DNA of 10,961 nucleotides from Corallincola sp. (GTDB lineage Bacteria > Pseudomonadota > Gammaproteobacteria > Enterobacterales > Neiellaceae). Each line of letters opens with the position of its first letter. The stretch's first letter is position 1. A program made the translations under genes and the position numbers. The notes under the pieces are model-generated. The model worked only from the letters and a program-made list of their open reading frames with translations. It had not been told where the DNA came from and searched no databases. The stretch lies in the NCBI GenBank assembly GCA_017998495.1, contig JAGOCY010000016.1, positions 1 to 10,961 of the forward strand, read 5' to 3'. Below are positions 7,549 through 10,922 of the stretch, piece after piece.

Positions 7549-7920
7549 AGTGGTGGCTAAGTTATGGCAAGGCAGGAATGGCCGTCACCTTGCCAGATTC
7601 CGGCGTTGCCAGCCAGCGGCGTGAGGCTATGGCTCGCCGGTGGTGGGGCGTGATCATCAGCCTGTGGCGGGACGCCAATGACAGGCTGTGGCTATGGTGG
7701 CGACAGCCACCACCCATTGGCCCAGCAGCGCGGCGCCCACCACAATCAGGCGGTGTCTGCTGTTCACCTTGGGAGGTGGTTATGACTCGCTTGCGCCGCT
7801 CGCTGCAGCCCGCCGTTACCCGTGTGTTACTCGGCTATCGCCGCCAGTGGTTGCTGGCGAGCGAGGTGTTGGTGGCGATGGCTCGCTGACGGTTGTCGTT
7901 TGCCACCGGCGTGGCCAGAG
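7549..7920. other. Hairpin-rich region, no convincing conserved gene
   Basis: No recognisable protein is encoded here apart from a possible 35-residue reading frame listed separately. CAGCCTGT (7658-7665) and ACAGGCTG (7681-7688) are perfect arms enclosing a second stem, GGCG (7666-7669) with CGCC (7673-7676), around a GGA loop. A further perfect stem, GGTGGC (7696-7701) with GCCACC (7706-7711), has a GACA loop. The style matches the structured repeats that follow, and this may be a diverged part of them. Confidence 0.4.
7782..7889 (+). CDS. Possible 35-residue small protein
   Basis: GGGAGG five bases before an ATG gives a good translation start for MTRLRRSLQPAV onward, 35 residues, ending AMAR. 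The product would be strongly basic at its N terminus (five arginines in the first 15 residues) and more hydrophobic later (WLLASEVLVAMA). The only support is the ribosome binding site and length; no family is recognised. It sits at the left edge of the hairpin-rich region and could be chance. Confidence 0.22.
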   Translation: MTRLRRSLQPAVTRVLLGYRRQWLLASEVLVAMAR

Positions 7921-8040
7921 AGCGGCTGCGCCGCTGCAGATTTGCCACTGCGTGGCGGCGGATTGCGGCTACGCCGCCCGGATGCGGGCTTCCGCGCCCG
8001 CGCGACGGGCAGGAGGAGGGTGGCCGGACCCTCCTCCTGC
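7921..8040 (-). repeat. Mini-hairpin array 1 with large hairpin
   Basis: Five consecutive perfect hairpins are separated by short linkers. Three are mini-hairpins with three-base loops: AGCGGC/GCCGCT (7921-7935), GCCAC/GTGGC (7944-7956) and GCGGC/GCCGC (7965-7977). Then comes GCGGGC/GCCCGC with a six-base loop (7984-8001), and finally a 13-bp stem starting GCAGGAGGAGGGT (8009-8040, six-base loop). Linkers are alike: GCAGATTT, GGCGGATT, CCGGAT. Strand is given in the orientation of copy C. It matches array 2 in order, with one unit fewer. To its right the sequence diverges from array 2 exactly where the outer stem of the 170-bp fold would begin. Confidence 0.8.
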
Positions 8041-8274
8041 ACCACCAGCCGGCCCGATAGAGCAGCGCCATCAAGGCCGTGGTTTGTTCCGGTGCTGCTG
8101 GCCGGCCGCTCGACGGCACATCCTTGTGCCGGGCTCGCTCTCGGCAACCTCCTGTTGCCTCGACCTGCCAGTAGCCCCAAGGTTAGGTTTGACTGCTGCG
8201 TGATCGCAGCGCTGCTCAAACGGGTGGACGAAGGCACTGCGCCGTTGCGATGCGCTGTGGTTGAGCTTTGGTTT
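8041..8274. other. Structured non-coding stretch between array 1 and copy A
   Basis: No gene is seen. Three perfect hairpins occur: CGGCACA/TGTGCCG (8114-8131, loop TCCT), GGCAAC/GTTGCC (8143-8159, loop CTCCT) and GCTGCG/CGCAGC (8195-8210, loop TGAT). On the minus strand the first two loops read AGGA and AGGAG, like those in the three-way junction copies. A long open frame on the minus strand across this region is judged an artefact of high GC. Confidence 0.5.
8212..8227 (+). repeat. Direct repeat CTGCTCAAACGGGTGG, first copy
   Basis: This 16-base sequence recurs exactly at 8491-8506, and the similarity continues weakly afterwards (GACGAAGGCAC against GAGAAGACACC). The two copies bracket structured copy A. 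Confidence 0.7.
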
Positions 8275-8448
8275 CCCCCTGGATCACCACCTGCACCCAT
8301 GCCTGCCGACCCAAGGCCAGTCGGGTGTCGGGGGTGAGCTGGCAGGGATGCCAGCGAAAGCACATCTGGGCAGGAGAGCCCATATTTGCGACCCCTCCGC
8401 CCGGCTAGCCGTGCGTAGTTATGCGCCGAGCGGGTAGTGAGCAAGGGG
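8275..8448 (+). repeat. Structured element copy A (rearranged)
   Basis: The core at 8331-8395 is a three-way junction. GGGGT (8331-8335) pairs with ACCCC (8391-8395). Hairpin GCTGGCA/TGCCAGC (8338-8355) has a GGGA loop. A GAAA linker follows at 8356-8359. The second hairpin (8360-8389) has an inner GGGC/GCCC stem and an AGGAGA loop. The left outer arm reads CCCCC then GATCACCACC (8282-8291). The right side is not the normal right arm but an inverted left-end sequence ending GGTAGTGAGCAAGGGG (8433-8448), which still pairs with the left arm at 8 of 10 positions. This copy therefore has two left ends facing each other and looks like a recombination product. Confidence 0.75.
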
Positions 8449-8490
8449 TAGGGCGAAGCATCAGCAGCTGGCTGTAGCCTAGTTACGCAT

Positions 8491-8506
8491 CTGCTCAAAC
8501 GGGTGG
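8491..8506 (+). repeat. Direct repeat CTGCTCAAACGGGTGG, second copy
   Basis: Exact second copy of the 16-base sequence at 8212-8227, lying just right of copy A and 79 bp before the vapC stop. It is followed by GAGAAGACACC, which resembles GCAGAAGACAC at 9709-9719 after another left-end fragment. Confidence 0.7.
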
Positions 8507-8584
8507 GAGAAGACACCCCGCGAATTTCTTTGGCGCAGCTGCATCTGGCTGGCAGTGGCGAGCGTGGGCCGCTCACGCCGCACG

Positions 8585-8989
8585 CTAGCTTTGCGTCCAG
8601 TCTTCAATGCGAATGCCGGCGACGCGGGCGAATTCGCGGCTGTTGTTGGTAACCAGAATCAGCCCCTGGCTGCGGGCGTGGCCGGCGATCATCTGGTCAT
8701 AGGGGCCAATGGGTTGCCCCAGCTGGGCCAGTTCGGCACGGATCTGGCCGCTGTGGATGGCGGCGGGGCGGTCGTAGGGCAGCACCTCAAGGCGGGCGGC
8801 GAAGCCGTCGATCACCGCGAGGTTGCGCTCTGGCGCAGCAGATTTCTCGGCGCCATAGATCAGCTCCATCAGGGTAATGGCGCTGATCGCCATCAGCCCG
8901 TGGTGACGGTTGAAGGCGGCGCGCACCTGCTCTGGCTTGTGCTTGATGGTGTAGATGCAGATGTTGGTATCGAGCAGGTACTTGAGCAT
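8585..8989 (-). CDS. vapC: VapC toxin, PIN-domain ribonuclease
   Basis: The 134-residue toxin closely resembles the enterobacterial and Haemophilus VapC group, which cleaves initiator tRNA. PIN-domain acidic residues are visible: Asp7 in YLLDTNICIY, Glu42 in LMELIYGAEKS, Asp98 in GPYDQMIAGHAR, then TNNSREF at 114-120. The length is normal and all key residues are present, so it should be active. The ATG at 8989 shares its A with the vapB stop codon (TGATG), giving translational coupling; a GTG one codon earlier is also possible. It forms a two-gene operon with vapB. The 3' end abuts a hairpin-forming sequence without a T run. Function as tRNA-fMet cleavage is inferred from the subgroup. Confidence 0.92.
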   Translation of the reverse strand: MLKYLLDTNICIYTIKHKPEQVRAAFNRHHGLMAISAITLMELIYGAEKSAAPERNLAVIDGFAARLEVLPYDRPAAIHSGQIRAELAQLGQPIGPYDQMIAGHARSQGLILVTNNSREFARVAGIRIEDWTQS

Positions 8990-9216
8990 CACAGCGCCTC
9001 GCGCTGCTGCTCCGCCGGCTGGTCGCGGTCGCTGGCAAAATCGGCAGAGACGGCCGGGCCATCAAACCAGCTGTCCCAGGATTCGCCTGCCGGGGTGATC
9101 AGCCGGGCGCGGCCCACGACCACTACCTCCACCCGTTTAACGTCATCTGGCAGCGCCACAGCTTTGGGCAAGCGCACCGCCTGGGTACGGCTGGCCATAA
9201 ATACGGTGGATTCCAT
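8989..9216 (-). CDS. vapB: VapB antitoxin, AbrB/SpoVT-type
   Basis: The 75-residue antitoxin has an N-terminal swapped-hairpin DNA-binding domain (FMASRTQAVRLPKAVALPDD at about 6-25, then VKRVEVVVVGRARLITPAG). Its C-terminal toxin-binding tail is rich in aromatic and acidic residues (SWDSWFDGPAVSADFASDRD). This is the VagC/VapB group normally paired with this VapC type. GAGG six bases before the ATG at 9216 sets the start. It binds and inhibits VapC, and the pair is expected to repress its own promoter through the inverted repeat at 9226-9258. It lies between structured copies A and B. Confidence 0.92.
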   Translation of the reverse strand: MESTVFMASRTQAVRLPKAVALPDDVKRVEVVVVGRARLITPAGESWDSWFDGPAVSADFASDRDQPAEQQREAL

Positions 9217-9225
9217 CGGGCACCT

Positions 9226-9258
9226 CATCTGGGATGTGCGGAGTGAATATCCCAGATG
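9226..9258. promoter_or_regulatory. vapBC operator, 10-bp inverted repeat
   Basis: CATCTGGGAT (9226-9235) and ATCCCAGATG (9249-9258) are perfect inverted arms with a 13-base spacer, 23 bp centre to centre (about two helical turns). The site lies from 9 to 42 bp upstream of the vapB ATG, and one arm overlaps the ribosome binding site. Two-arm sites like this are typical of VapBC autoregulation. Confidence 0.78.
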
Positions 9259-9329
9259 CTAGTCCGCTGGTGGTGGTTGCGCAACCGTTGGTGGGGATGT
9301 GGTTGCGCCTGCAGCGCTGGCTGGTTGTT

Positions 9330-9464
9330 GCCGCTACGCGGCCAGATCCGCCACTGCGTGGCGGCAGATGCGCCTGCGGCGCCGGATTGCGGCTGCGCCG
9401 CCCGGATGCGGGGTGTTGCCCCCGCGCGACAAGCAGGAGGAGGGTGGCCGGACCCTCCTCCTGC
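9330..9464 (-). repeat. Mini-hairpin array 2 with large hairpin
   Basis: Six consecutive perfect hairpins. Four mini-hairpins have three-base loops: GCCGC/GCGGC (9330-9342), GCCAC/GTGGC (9350-9362), GCGCC/GGCGC (9370-9382) and GCGGC/GCCGC (9389-9401). Then GCGGGG/CCCCGC has a six-base loop (9408-9425), followed by the same 13-bp stem as array 1 (9433-9464). Linkers CAGATCC, GGCAGAT, CGGATT and CCGGAT match array 1. The unit at 9370-9382 is extra relative to array 1. Read on the element strand, the triloops are GTA or GCA. It joins structured copy B directly. Confidence 0.85.
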
Positions 9465-9476
9465 ACCACCAGCCGG

Positions 9477-9645
9477 CCCCCAAGCTCACCACCATCAATA
9501 TCTGGCTGATGTTCTGCCGGCCTCCGGGGTCGCAAATATGGGCTGTCCTGCCCAGATTTGCTTTCGCTGGCATCCTTGCCAGCTCACCCCCTGCGCCCGG
9601 CTGGCCGTGCGTTAGCCAGCGCCGTGCGGGTGGTGAGCAAGGGGG
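9477..9645 (-). repeat. Structured element copy B
   Basis: This is a complete copy. The outer stem pairs GCTCACCACC (9484-9493) with GGTGGTGAGC (9629-9638), followed across an AA/AA internal loop by CCCCC (9477-9481) with GGGGG (9641-9645). The three-way junction core lies at 9526-9590: GGGGT (9526-9530) pairs with ACCCC (9586-9590), hairpin GCTGGCA/TGCCAGC (9566-9583) has loop AGGA on the minus strand, then the GAAA linker, and a second hairpin at 9532-9561 has stems GCAAAT/ATTTGC and GGGC/GCCC. Compared with copy C, bases differ but pairing is kept. No open reading frame across it looks real. Confidence 0.85.
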
Positions 9646-9666
9646 GGGAATACGGCGCTGCCGCTG

Positions 9667-9720
9667 AGCGGCTGGTCGTGCGTTGGCCAAACGCGGCGCA
9701 GGTGGTGGGCAGAAGACACA
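9667..9720. repeat. Diverged left-end fragment of the structured element
   Basis: The plus-strand sequence CGGCTGGTCGTGCGTTGGCC, followed by a CAGGTGGTGGGCAGAAGAC segment, resembles the left end of copy B at 9598-9645 (CGGCTGGCCGTGCGTTAGCC, then GGTGGTGAGCAAGGGG). It is a second, decayed left end just outside copy B. The similar sequence at 8399-8448 is part of copy A. Confidence 0.55.
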
Positions 9721-9831
9721 GCTCGCTTTTCACCCATAGCCTGCTGGACTTCTGCGCTGACACGGTATAGAAATCAGCCACACGCATTCAGCTGACCACC
9801 GATTTCCGTTAAGTGGAAACGAGCCAGTAGA

Positions 9832-9860
9832 TTGATCAGGTTGTTAGTGTTTTTTAGAGC
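9832..9860 (+). promoter_or_regulatory. brnT: Possible promoter of the brnT operon
   Basis: TTGATC (9832-9837) and TAGAGC (9855-9860) are 17 bases apart in an AT-rich stretch just before the brnT ribosome binding site. The -10 match is weak. A small inverted repeat, TTTCC/GGAAA (9803-9819), lies just upstream and might bind a regulator. Confidence 0.3.
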
Positions 9861-9877
9861 AAACAGGGAGGTCATAA

Positions 9878-10162
9878 ATGGACTACGAATGGGACGAAAA
9901 CAAGCGGACTAGTAACCTCGAAAAGCATGGTGTAGATTTCGTCGCTGCGGTCGAGGTGTTCAAAGATAAAGACCGTATTGAGACTGAAGATACACGGAAA
10001 GACTACGGTGAGGTACGGCTGCAGAGTATTGGTGAGGCCCGGCCTGGAGTGCTATTTGTAGTTTATACGTTGCGAGACAAGGGCTCGACGCGACGTCTGA
10101 TCTCTGCGCGCAAGGCAAACCTTAAAGAGCGCGCAATTTATCTGTCACTTAAAGGAAAGTAA
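9878..10162 (+). CDS. brnT: BrnT-family ribonuclease toxin
   Basis: The 94-residue protein belongs to the BrnT (DUF497) family, RelE-like ribonuclease toxins. The N-terminal signature YEWDENKRTSNLEKHGVDF (3-21) and the C-terminal signature RRLISARKANLKERAIY (72-88) are both intact. Between them is VEVFKDKDRIETEDTRKDYGEVRLQSIG, and then the strand GVLFVVYTLRD. The length is normal, so it is probably functional. GGGAGGT five bases before the ATG gives a strong start. The gene and the two that follow are clearly AT-richer than the rest of the window, suggesting separate acquisition. Two BrnA-like short proteins follow in the place of a normal antitoxin. Confidence 0.88.
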   Translation: MDYEWDENKRTSNLEKHGVDFVAAVEVFKDKDRIETEDTRKDYGEVRLQSIGEARPGVLFVVYTLRDKGSTRRLISARKANLKERAIYLSLKGK

Positions 10163-10173
10163 GGGGCTGACGC

Positions 10174-10350
10174 ATGAAAAAATACACTGAAGAGCAGCTT
10201 AAGCACATGCAGGACAAGACGGATTACGACCGTCTTGAGAACATGACTGAAGACGAAGTTGAGGAAAATTCGGTCATTGACGAAGATTCATTGACACCAT
10301 CAGATGCTGACCTGGCAAAATTTAAAAAGGTTAAGAATGATGGCCAGTGA
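10174..10350 (+). CDS. Short BrnA-like antitoxin candidate 1 (58 aa)
   Basis: The 58-residue acidic protein begins MKKYTEEQLKHMQDKTDYDR, continues LENMTEDEVEENS, and ends KKVKNDGQ. The KTDYDRLENMTEDEV stretch resembles the N-terminal toxin-facing part of BrnA-type antitoxins (COG3514, typically T-D-W-x-R-L then M-T-D-E). The C-terminal ribbon-helix-helix domain that BrnA uses to bind DNA is absent; the protein stops where that domain would begin. The ATG at 10174 is 11 bp after brnT, with AAGGGG close upstream. It could be a complete short antitoxin or a truncated BrnA. Neutralisation of BrnT is inferred from position and motif. Confidence 0.72.
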   Translation: MKKYTEEQLKHMQDKTDYDRLENMTEDEVEENSVIDEDSLTPSDADLAKFKKVKNDGQ

Positions 10351-10516
10351 AAACTTGAAGCGAGTCAACCAGAAAACGGTCAAGGCAGTAAAGGATAATA
10401 CCGATTGGGACAGGGTTTATTCACAGACCGAAGGTGAAATTCAGAATAATGCAGTATCTGATCCTGATGCGCCCTGTCTGAAAGATGCAGTGTACAAAAA
10501 AGTCGGTAAAAGCTAA
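10337..10516 (+). CDS. Short BrnA-like antitoxin candidate 2 (59 aa)
   Basis: The 59-residue protein overlaps the previous gene by 14 bp in another frame, with AAAAAGG six bases before the ATG at 10337 (a second ATG follows immediately). It carries DNTDWDRVYSQTEGEIQNNA then SDPDAPCLKDAVYKK. TDWDRV, QTEGEI and SDPDAP are again BrnA-N-terminus-like, and also align with KTDYDRLENMTEDEV in the preceding protein. A basic N terminus (LKRVNQKTVKAVK) precedes the motif. It too lacks a ribbon-helix-helix domain. Two tandem paralogous short antitoxins behind one BrnT is the simplest reading; how they share the job is unknown. Confidence 0.68.
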   Translation: MMASENLKRVNQKTVKAVKDNTDWDRVYSQTEGEIQNNAVSDPDAPCLKDAVYKKVGKS

Positions 10517-10530
10517 CAAGCATGGCTAAC

Positions 10531-10558
10531 GGGACTGCCGTCACTTTGCGGCAGTTCC
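10531..10558 (+). terminator. Hairpin after the brnT operon, possible terminator
   Basis: GGGACTGCCG (10531-10540) pairs with CGGCAGTTCC (10549-10558), 10 bp with one G-T pair and an eight-base loop, 14 bp after the last stop codon. No T run follows immediately, so termination is possible but weak. It also lies just outside structured copy C and could mark its edge. Confidence 0.4.
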
Positions 10559-10586
10559 TACCTTCCAGTAGCCACATTTTTCCTCA

Positions 10587-10755
10587 CCCCTTGATCACCA
10601 CCCGCACCCACGCCAGCTAACCCACGGCCAGCCGGGTGTAGGGGTTGAGTCGCCTGGACGGCGACGAAAGCCACTAAGGCACAGGGAGGTGACTTTGTGG
10701 CGACCCCGTAACCCGGCAGAACACAGCACATTGTCGATGGTGGTGATCTCGGGGG
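10587..10755 (+). repeat. Structured element copy C
   Basis: This is a complete copy. The outer stem pairs GATCACCACC (10593-10602) with GGTGGTGATC (10739-10748), then CCCC (10587-10590) with GGGG (10751-10754) across a 2-by-2 internal loop. CACCC (10605-10609) can pair with GGGTG (10634-10638). The three-way junction pairs GGGGT (10641-10645) with ACCCC (10703-10707), with hairpin GTCGCC/GGCGAC (10649-10665, loop TGGAC), linker GAAA (10666-10669) and hairpin GCCAC/GTGGC (10670-10701) whose inner stem ends in loop AGGGAG. Relative to copy B, the stem sequences change on both sides together. Confidence 0.85.
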
Positions 10756-10766
10756 CCGCCGGGATT

Positions 10767-10922
10767 GGTAAGGGCCGGGCGGGTCCGGCCCTTACCTGGC
10801 CAGCGCCGGCCAGTCGGCGCTCTTATCAAATCGCGACGCGATTTGTCTCAACGCCCGCCGCGCAGCGGCAATCTCAGTGACGAGATACGAGTCGCGAACA
10901 GCAGACGCCGCCACGCAGTGGC
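10767..10922 (+). repeat. Mini-hairpin array 3 with large hairpin
   Basis: In the same order as array 2 read on its element strand, a large hairpin comes first: a 12-bp stem starting GGTAAGGGCCGG (10767-10796, six-base loop). Next is GCGCCG/CGGCGC with a six-base loop (10803-10820). A CAAATCGC/GCGATTTG hairpin follows with loop GAC (10827-10845), then GCCGC/GCGGC with loop GCA (10857-10869), ATCTC/GAGAT with a six-base loop (10871-10886) and GCCAC/GTGGC with loop GCA (10910-10922). CCAAATCC after it is the linker type seen in array 1. The array may continue past the window end. Confidence 0.8.

What the first reader, a model, noticed from the sequence alone, without database searches (positions are those of the whole stretch)
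8275..10755. Repeated structured element with covarying stems (three copies)
Copies A, B and C share an unusual fold of about 170 bp. An outer stem encloses a three-way junction closed by GGGGT/ACCCC, with two hairpins joined by GAAA. The sequences differ between B and C, yet pairing is kept. The outer stem is GCTCACCACC/GGTGGTGAGC in B and GATCACCACC/GGTGGTGATC in C, a clean double change. Hairpin 1 is GCTGGCA/TGCCAGC against GTCGCC/GGCGAC, and hairpin 2 changes on both sides too. Selection on folding, not on coding, is the natural explanation. I cannot match it to a known family from memory.
Basis: partly seen in the sequence, partly recalled or inferred. Interest (0 to 1): 0.85.

Follow-up and report, generated by a model that had tools for sequence, protein, structure and literature searches.

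The report
Folded RNA repeats framing gene cassettes
The three repeats belong to a known but functionally unexplained folded RNA family; in this bacterium and a relative they occur in large numbers, often in facing pairs around imported genes such as integron cassettes, and in another genus similar facing pairs often surround genes that resemble anti-virus systems.

Summary
Copies B and C, and a chimeric copy A, fold as described. A covariance model finds at least 39 copies in the window's genome and 130 in a same-genus MAG. In 60 copies, 20 of 33 pairs changed on both sides and 98.5% of cells pair.

The family is not new. The core is Rfam RF01731, TwoAYGGAY, an RNA of unknown function. Window copies score below gathering (38.1 and 28.1 against 43); a copy in the same genome passes at 47.3.

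What looks unreported is the layout: inverted pairs, 5' ends inward. Of 14 attI copies found by search of both genomes, 13 lie within 260 bp of a facing 5' end (11 intact, 2 truncated) and one lies behind intI. The window unit (9473-10759) holds brnT. In another genus the listed rows give 12 inward and 0 outward pairs; 7 of 10 framed loci read have defence-model hits inside. A strong hairpin follows the core in 23 of 30.

Best reading: a cargo-framing, probably non-autonomous mobile element whose transcript folds and may bind CsrA. Mobility, boundaries, enzyme and CsrA binding are unproven.

The parts
   Evidence: R1 72.4 bits; HMM T2 42 bits
8276..8453 (+). copy A of the core, chimeric 3' half
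   Evidence: R1 93.3 bits; HMM 1-130 on plus and 1-60 on minus at 8389-8448
9473..9644 (-). copy B of the core (5' end at 9644, facing the brnT cargo)
   Evidence: R1 178.6 bits; RF01731 at 9526-9590, 38.1 bits
9433..9464 (-). tail hairpin of copy B (stem GCAGGAGGAGGGT, 6-nt loop)
   Evidence: read from sequence; same tail class in other copies
9707..9892 (+). attI-like module with a putative cassette promoter, starting 63 bp from the 5' end of copy B
   Evidence: attI HMM 136 bits (this copy was one of the three seeds of that HMM); BLAST to a G001 attI copy 77 bits over 9721-9782. A strict sigma-70 scan does not call the promoter
9878..10162 (+). brnT toxin gene, the cargo
   Evidence: PF04365 91.8 bits
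10174..10350 (+). small ORF where the BrnA antitoxin usually lies (placement recalled)
   Evidence: ORF only; no NCBIfam match; not scanned with Pfam
10304..10516 (+). second small ORF of the cargo
   Evidence: ORF; no Pfam or NCBIfam match
10512..10560 (+). attC-like 5' half without a matching 3' GTT half
   Evidence: read from sequence; not called by the attC scan
10587..10759 (+). copy C of the core (5' end facing the brnT cargo)
   Evidence: R1 185.0 bits; RF01731 10639-10725, 28.1 bits
10767..10796 (+). tail hairpin of copy C (stem GGTAAGGGCCGG, 6-nt loop)
   Evidence: read from sequence; shared tail class

Best explanation
The element is a TwoAYGGAY-family structured element: a core of about 170 nt (outer stem, inner stem, three-way junction, two hairpins whose loops keep GGA) followed by an unannotated tail hairpin. 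SHOWN by calls: the fold is conserved on one strand; copies are very numerous in this genus; adjacent copies are far more often inverted with 5' ends inward than outward; in this genus the space inside repeatedly holds integron parts (attI-like module, cassettes, once intI), and in another genus often genes that hit defence models. INFERRED: a pair works as a frame for accessory cargo. New cargo arrives by recombination between frames, or frame and cargo move as a unit by an unidentified enzyme that reads the folded strand. Transcripts leaving the cargo run into the folded core and tail, which may bind CsrA and insulate the neighbouring, mostly convergent, host genes.
For: Covariation. G-U 110 against A-C 17. 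GGA invariant in hairpin 1 and nearly so in hairpin 2 of 60 copies. Rfam match. Inward against outward pairs: own genus 21 to 4, genus g15 12 to 0 in the listed rows. attI search of both genomes: 14 matches; 12 have an intact element with its 5' end facing, 11 of them within 260 bp and one behind intI; 2 have truncated heads; a head within 260 bp is expected at about 0.005 of sites. intI: TIGR02249 381.9 bits. Defence-model hits inside 7 of 10 framed loci elsewhere. Tail hairpin downstream in 23 of 30, upstream in 2 of 30. Downstream neighbour convergent in 44 of 62, by a home-made gene caller. Orthologous sites differ by whole units or by element type between the two species.
Against: No clean empty site or target duplication was found. 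No enzyme is tied to the elements: no PF01797 hit in the genus, and RAYT loci carry the RNA over gathering in 1 of 20. Same-strand neighbours are common (own genus 14 of 39 pairs; other genera 13 of 25). The 12 inward pairs all come from one genus; other genera give single pairs only (L149; L198). Defence enrichment over outside genes is not significant by ORF (9 of 17 against 2 of 10, p 0.12), and own-genus cargo proteins hit PADLOC in 2 of 13, one only at E 9e-4. CsrA binding, transcription and insulation are untested.
Confidence: 0.48

Rival explanations
1. The elements are only RNA devices (CsrA-binding 3' structures or insulators) that build up at the borders of foreign islands; they do not move cargo. 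Their number comes from ordinary duplication and homologous recombination.
For: RMfam reports two CsrA-motif matches in TwoAYGGAY (PMC4333381, one passage seen). G-U excess on one strand. Tail hairpin downstream. Convergent neighbours 44 of 62. At one orthologous site both species carry an element with alignable tail but different core subtype (L145 against L091), as local conversion would give.
Against: 130 matches in one MAG, pairs without cargo at a 45-46 bp spacing, and attI copies repeatedly beside a 5' end look like amplified units.
Confidence: 0.3
2. They are ends of a REP/RAYT-type system: a Y1 transposase moves the folded single strand.
For: Two framed loci in genus g15 have a RAYT homologue beside the tail (L190, L194; L194 protein NF047646 42 bits, below its cut-off). 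G001 holds an intact homologue (334-aa frame, 46% identity).
Against: Only 1 of 20 RAYT loci tested holds RF01731 over gathering; PF01797 control loci 0 of 20. Of the 7 G001 stretches with RAYT matches, one holds an R1 match, an element already known, about 1.1 kb from the fragment. RAYT matches are so numerous (up to 48 per genome) that neighbours by chance are expected.
Confidence: 0.1
3. They are miniature inverted-repeat transposable elements moved by a DDE transposase (as in integron mobilization units bounded by Tn3-type TIMEs); the folding is a by-product of terminal inverted repeats.
For: Inverted copies bounding an integron unit, as in IMU and TIME-COMPs (PMC13367494, passages seen).
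Against: Internal hairpins covary as strongly as the outer stem. The G-U against A-C asymmetry is not expected from double-stranded repeats. The 3' flank is shared (tail) while the 5' flank varies more. No direct repeats were found, but unit boundaries are not fixed.
Confidence: 0.1
4. The core is itself a recombination site of the integron integrase, a large attC-like hairpin.
For: Folded single strand next to attI and cassettes.
Against: No consistent GTT-type cut motif in the core alignment (by reading); the same family frames other cargo in genus g15, where the ORFs read inside 10 loci include no integrase that I recognised (not searched by model); attC sites are separate.
Confidence: 0.02

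Closest known systems
TwoAYGGAY RNA, Rfam RF01731 (Weinberg et al. 2010, PMC2864571: one table row seen)
   Same: Three-way junction with two hairpins whose loops hold GGA; same strand; a full-length match over gathering in the window's genome.
   Different: Most copies tested here score below gathering (1 match over it in 20 loci); stems differ; a tail hairpin follows; copies are very numerous and often framed in inverted pairs. Passages of the 5 papers listed do not mention framing; the word integron is absent from the 3 of them searched for it.
Integron mobilization unit and TIME-COMPs (PMC13367494, passages seen)
   Same: Two copies of a non-autonomous element bound an integron segment.
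   Different: Those are Tn3-derived with 5-6 bp duplications; no duplications were found here, and the elements here are constrained as a folded strand.
REP sequences with RAYT transposases
   Same: Dispersed, palindromic, intergenic, strand-specific folding (general knowledge).
   Different: Much larger and multi-branched; RAYT genes not consistently adjacent.
CsrA-binding RNAs such as CsrB/RsmZ
   Same: GGA in hairpin loops (loop consensus recalled; RMfam match in PMC4333381).
   Different: Not a single sRNA gene; a repeat. CsrA binding not tested.

Membership tests
RF01731 TwoAYGGAY | Covariance score at or above gathering (43 bits) | tested here: inconclusive
   Window copies not met: B 38.1, C 28.1. 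A copy in the same genome met: L114:4538-4683, 47.3 bits over 1-168. It was the only match over gathering in the 20 loci of that call.
RF01731 TwoAYGGAY | Two adjacent hairpins with GGA-type (AYGGAY) loops in a junction | tested here: met
   GGA columns invariant in hairpin 1 and nearly invariant in hairpin 2 of 60 copies; alignment to the model shown for L122. Strict AYGGAY occurs only in part of the copies.
RF01731 TwoAYGGAY | Tandem G-A pairs in one stem (reported in PMC4333381) | not tested
   No test made.
Integron | intI integrase | tested here: met
   One copy in G001 (TIGR02249 381.9 bits); none in the window unit.
Integron | attI and attC sites | tested here: inconclusive
   attI-like module in window; attC sites in L122, L050 and L088 by reading; only an attC-like half in the window.
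Tn3-derived TIME / IMU | Tn3-type ends and 5-6 bp target duplications | tested here: inconclusive
   Unit boundaries could not be fixed; no duplication seen; ends were not compared with Tn3 by a tool.
REP/RAYT | RAYT gene flanked by the same element | tested here: not met
   1 of 20 RAYT loci; of 7 G001 RAYT stretches one holds an element, about 1.1 kb away.
CsrA-binding RNA | Binding of CsrA | not testable with these tools
   Only the loop motif is seen.

The most novel reading that the evidence does not exclude
TwoAYGGAY RNAs are the visible ends of an unrecognised class of cargo-carrying element: inverted folded frames that capture and exchange anti-phage systems in at least one other genus and, in this genus, have carried an integron platform (attI with cassettes, mostly without integrase) to many chromosomal sites.
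Probability: 0.32. Interest if true: 0.87.

Novelty: new variant of a known kind. Interest (0 to 1): 0.7.

Why it matters
TwoAYGGAY was described in 2010 and the passages seen give it no proven function. Tying it to inverted frames around defence-like genes and integron cassettes gives the family a testable role. It could also help to find accessory islands without knowing their genes. A genome in which attI has spread in a dozen mostly integrase-free copies would change how integron platforms are thought to disperse.

Tried and rejected
Rfam at gathering on the window: nothing; resolved by E-value search and by relatives. Plasmids and phages by blastn, viral contigs by one exact pattern: no match. 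PF01797 in the genus: none; RAYT found later by protein but not linked to the elements. attC-site idea for the core dropped. A first attC scan was too strict and found nothing; the looser one gives many false hits, so attC claims rest on reading. The gene caller was home-made and misses low-GC genes such as brnT. The promoter scan did not support Pc. The attI count in fetched loci (nearest head-facing in 17 of 18) is biased because loci were fetched through elements; the search of both genomes replaces it. The attI copy on G001 C57 has only a truncated head read by eye, and C67:1412 only a 48-position head.

Empty sites: flanks of 16 G001 sites were joined; 23 of the 32 flank segments, from 14 of the 16 sites (9 with both flanks, 5 with one), were pasted in two queries. 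They gave 5 matches. In one search I paired two of the resulting loci with the wrong G001 locus; one search mends this. L145 aligns with L091: the same gene end carries a type-2-like element in G000 and a type-1 element in G001, with alignable tails. L146 aligns with L056 over 31 bp only. L143 aligns with L064 up to 330 bp from its core and holds no core in its remaining 1.2 kb, but the other flank was not found. L144 starts near a contig end. None is a clean empty site.

Full report
OBSERVATION. The three copies are present. Copies B (9473-9644, conserved strand minus) and C (10587-10759) carry the stems quoted and score 178.6 and 185.0 bits with a covariance model built later, which includes them. 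Copy A scores 93.3 bits and is a chimera; a diverged copy at 8049-8223 scores 72.4.

COPY NUMBER. The window is contig C380 of G000, a 2.2-Mb, 61% complete MAG. Model R1 finds 39 matches in G000 and 130 in G001, a same-genus MAG of 88% completeness; 150 candidates were scored per genome, so these are lower bounds. G001 is JAFOOX01, isolate RGIG665, dairy cattle jejunum: stretches match at 100%. An exact core pattern over one genome for each of 84,980 species hits only that MAG, 45 stretches (that tool may leave out the own genome).

FOLD. From 96 deduplicated full copies (20 from G000, 76 from G001) I aligned 60. RNAalifold gives an outer stem, an inner stem, a GGGG/CCCC junction stem and two hairpins. 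Of 33 pairs 20 have changes on both sides, 98.5% of cells pair, and 0 of 500 shuffles reach the covariation score; one of five measures, further pair types, was reached by 33 of 500. Over 94 copies there are 110 G-U but 17 A-C cells (binomial p 7e-18, copies not independent).

FAMILY. Rfam at gathering finds nothing in the window. Model R1 finds weak matches in 7 further genomes among 295 of the order. Rfam names 3 of the 7 loci fetched for them as RF01731 TwoAYGGAY, 4 matches over gathering. At E-value threshold the same family hits B (38.1 bits) and C (28.1). A copy in G000 passes gathering over the whole model, 47.3 bits, the only one in the 20 loci of that call. TwoAYGGAY was listed in 2010 as a probable RNA and probably not cis-regulatory (PMC2864571, table row seen). 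It was later matched to the CsrA motif, with a sequestration hypothesis (PMC4333381, one passage seen). I saw passages of the 5 papers that one search lists for the name; none of these passages mentions framing. The word integron is absent from the 3 in which I searched for it.

LAYOUT IN THIS GENUS. Adjacent cores within 6 kb in the fetched loci: inward 21, same strand 14, outward 4 (inward against outward p 0.0009). Three inward pairs are 45-46 bp apart and hold no cargo. The downstream neighbour gene faces the tail in 44 of 62 (home-made gene caller that misses low-GC genes). G001 C1 holds an integron integrase (TIGR02249 381.9 bits against cut-off 265), an attI-like region and several cassettes with attC sites between a type-2 element and a type-1 element. 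L050 and L088 hold attI, cassette genes and attC without intI between elements. In the window, B and C frame an attI-like module, brnT (PF04365), two small ORFs and half an attC-like site. L107 holds YefM-YoeB. vapBC lies outside, on the tail side of B.

ATTI TEST. Because loci had been fetched through elements, I searched both genomes with one attI copy: 14 matches, 12 in G001 and 2 in G000. From the coordinates, 12 of 14 have an intact element with its 5' end facing, 11 within 260 bp and one behind intI. The other two have truncated heads (C67, 48 positions; C57, read from sequence, where R1 finds no element on that 3.5-kb contig). A head within 260 bp is expected at about 0.5% of sites.

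OTHER GENERA. RF01731 occurs in 85 of 295 genomes of the order at E 0.001 or better (the two genomes of this genus included), over its cut-off in 65, and in none of 14 control genomes. Only the best 9 candidates per genome are scored and the list is cut. Counting the listed rows by hand, neighbours under 6 kb are inward 12, outward 0, same strand 13. All 12 inward pairs come from 9 genomes of one genus (g15). Single inward pairs in other genera are L149 and L198 (second element). I fetched all 12 and the L198 pair and read 11 of the 12 plus L198. Of these 12 loci 10 have more than 500 bp inside, 9 from g15 and L198. PADLOC hits at E 0.001 occur inside 7 of the 10: PDC-S49, NsnA-like, PDC-M11A with RTasSLATT, PDC-S31 twice, Septu-like PDC-M01, Lamassu LmuB. 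By ORF, 9 of 17 tested cargo ORFs hit, against 2 of 10 outside genes, p 0.12; several cargo ORFs were not tested. In the own genus 2 of 10 cassette or cargo proteins hit, one only at E 9e-4, and 0 of 3. A hairpin of 10 or more pairs with a 4-9 nt loop follows the core in 23 of 30 loci (best match per genome) and precedes it in 2 of 30.

HISTORY OF SITES. At the yifB-like 3' end (gene name recalled) G001 has cargo and a second element that G000 lacks. At another gene G001 has an extra element with cargo. At a third both carry an element with alignable tail but different core subtype. At L107 and L114 the neighbouring elements differ from G001 in orientation or type. These show turnover, not its mechanism.

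MECHANISM. Shown: folding constraint, framing in two genera, attI adjacency. Inferred: exchange or movement as a unit, insulation, CsrA binding. The enzyme is unknown; RAYT was tested and not supported.

VERDICT. A known RNA family in a strongly amplified variant with an apparently unreported layout.

Noticed in passing
window 7900-8050, 9343-9430, 10800-10922 and behind many cores: Runs of small palindromes with GCA or GTA triloops (for example GCGGCGCAGCCGC, GCCACGCAGTGGC), on the same strand as the core, follow the tail; stems vary while the loop stays.
   Followed up: partly
L122:623-1630 (G001 C1): Integron integrase with an array of several cassettes and attC sites in a cattle-gut gammaproteobacterium MAG.
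   Followed up: partly
left flanks of L044, L062:3247, L070, L050:253: A repeat like GCCCTTCGACAGGCTCAGGGCGAACGGG directly before several elements.
   Followed up: no
L267 (G001 C57) and L251 (G001 C37): RAYT-like transposase fragments and one intact gene; an attI module sits beside rhs-like sequence (by eye) on C57.
   Followed up: partly
behind elements in L043, L122, L078 and others: Tandem AGATACGAG repeats of variable length follow some tails.
   Followed up: no
window 8585-9228 (minus): vapBC pair on the tail side of copy B, conserved with B in G001 (L088, 92% identity).
   Followed up: partly
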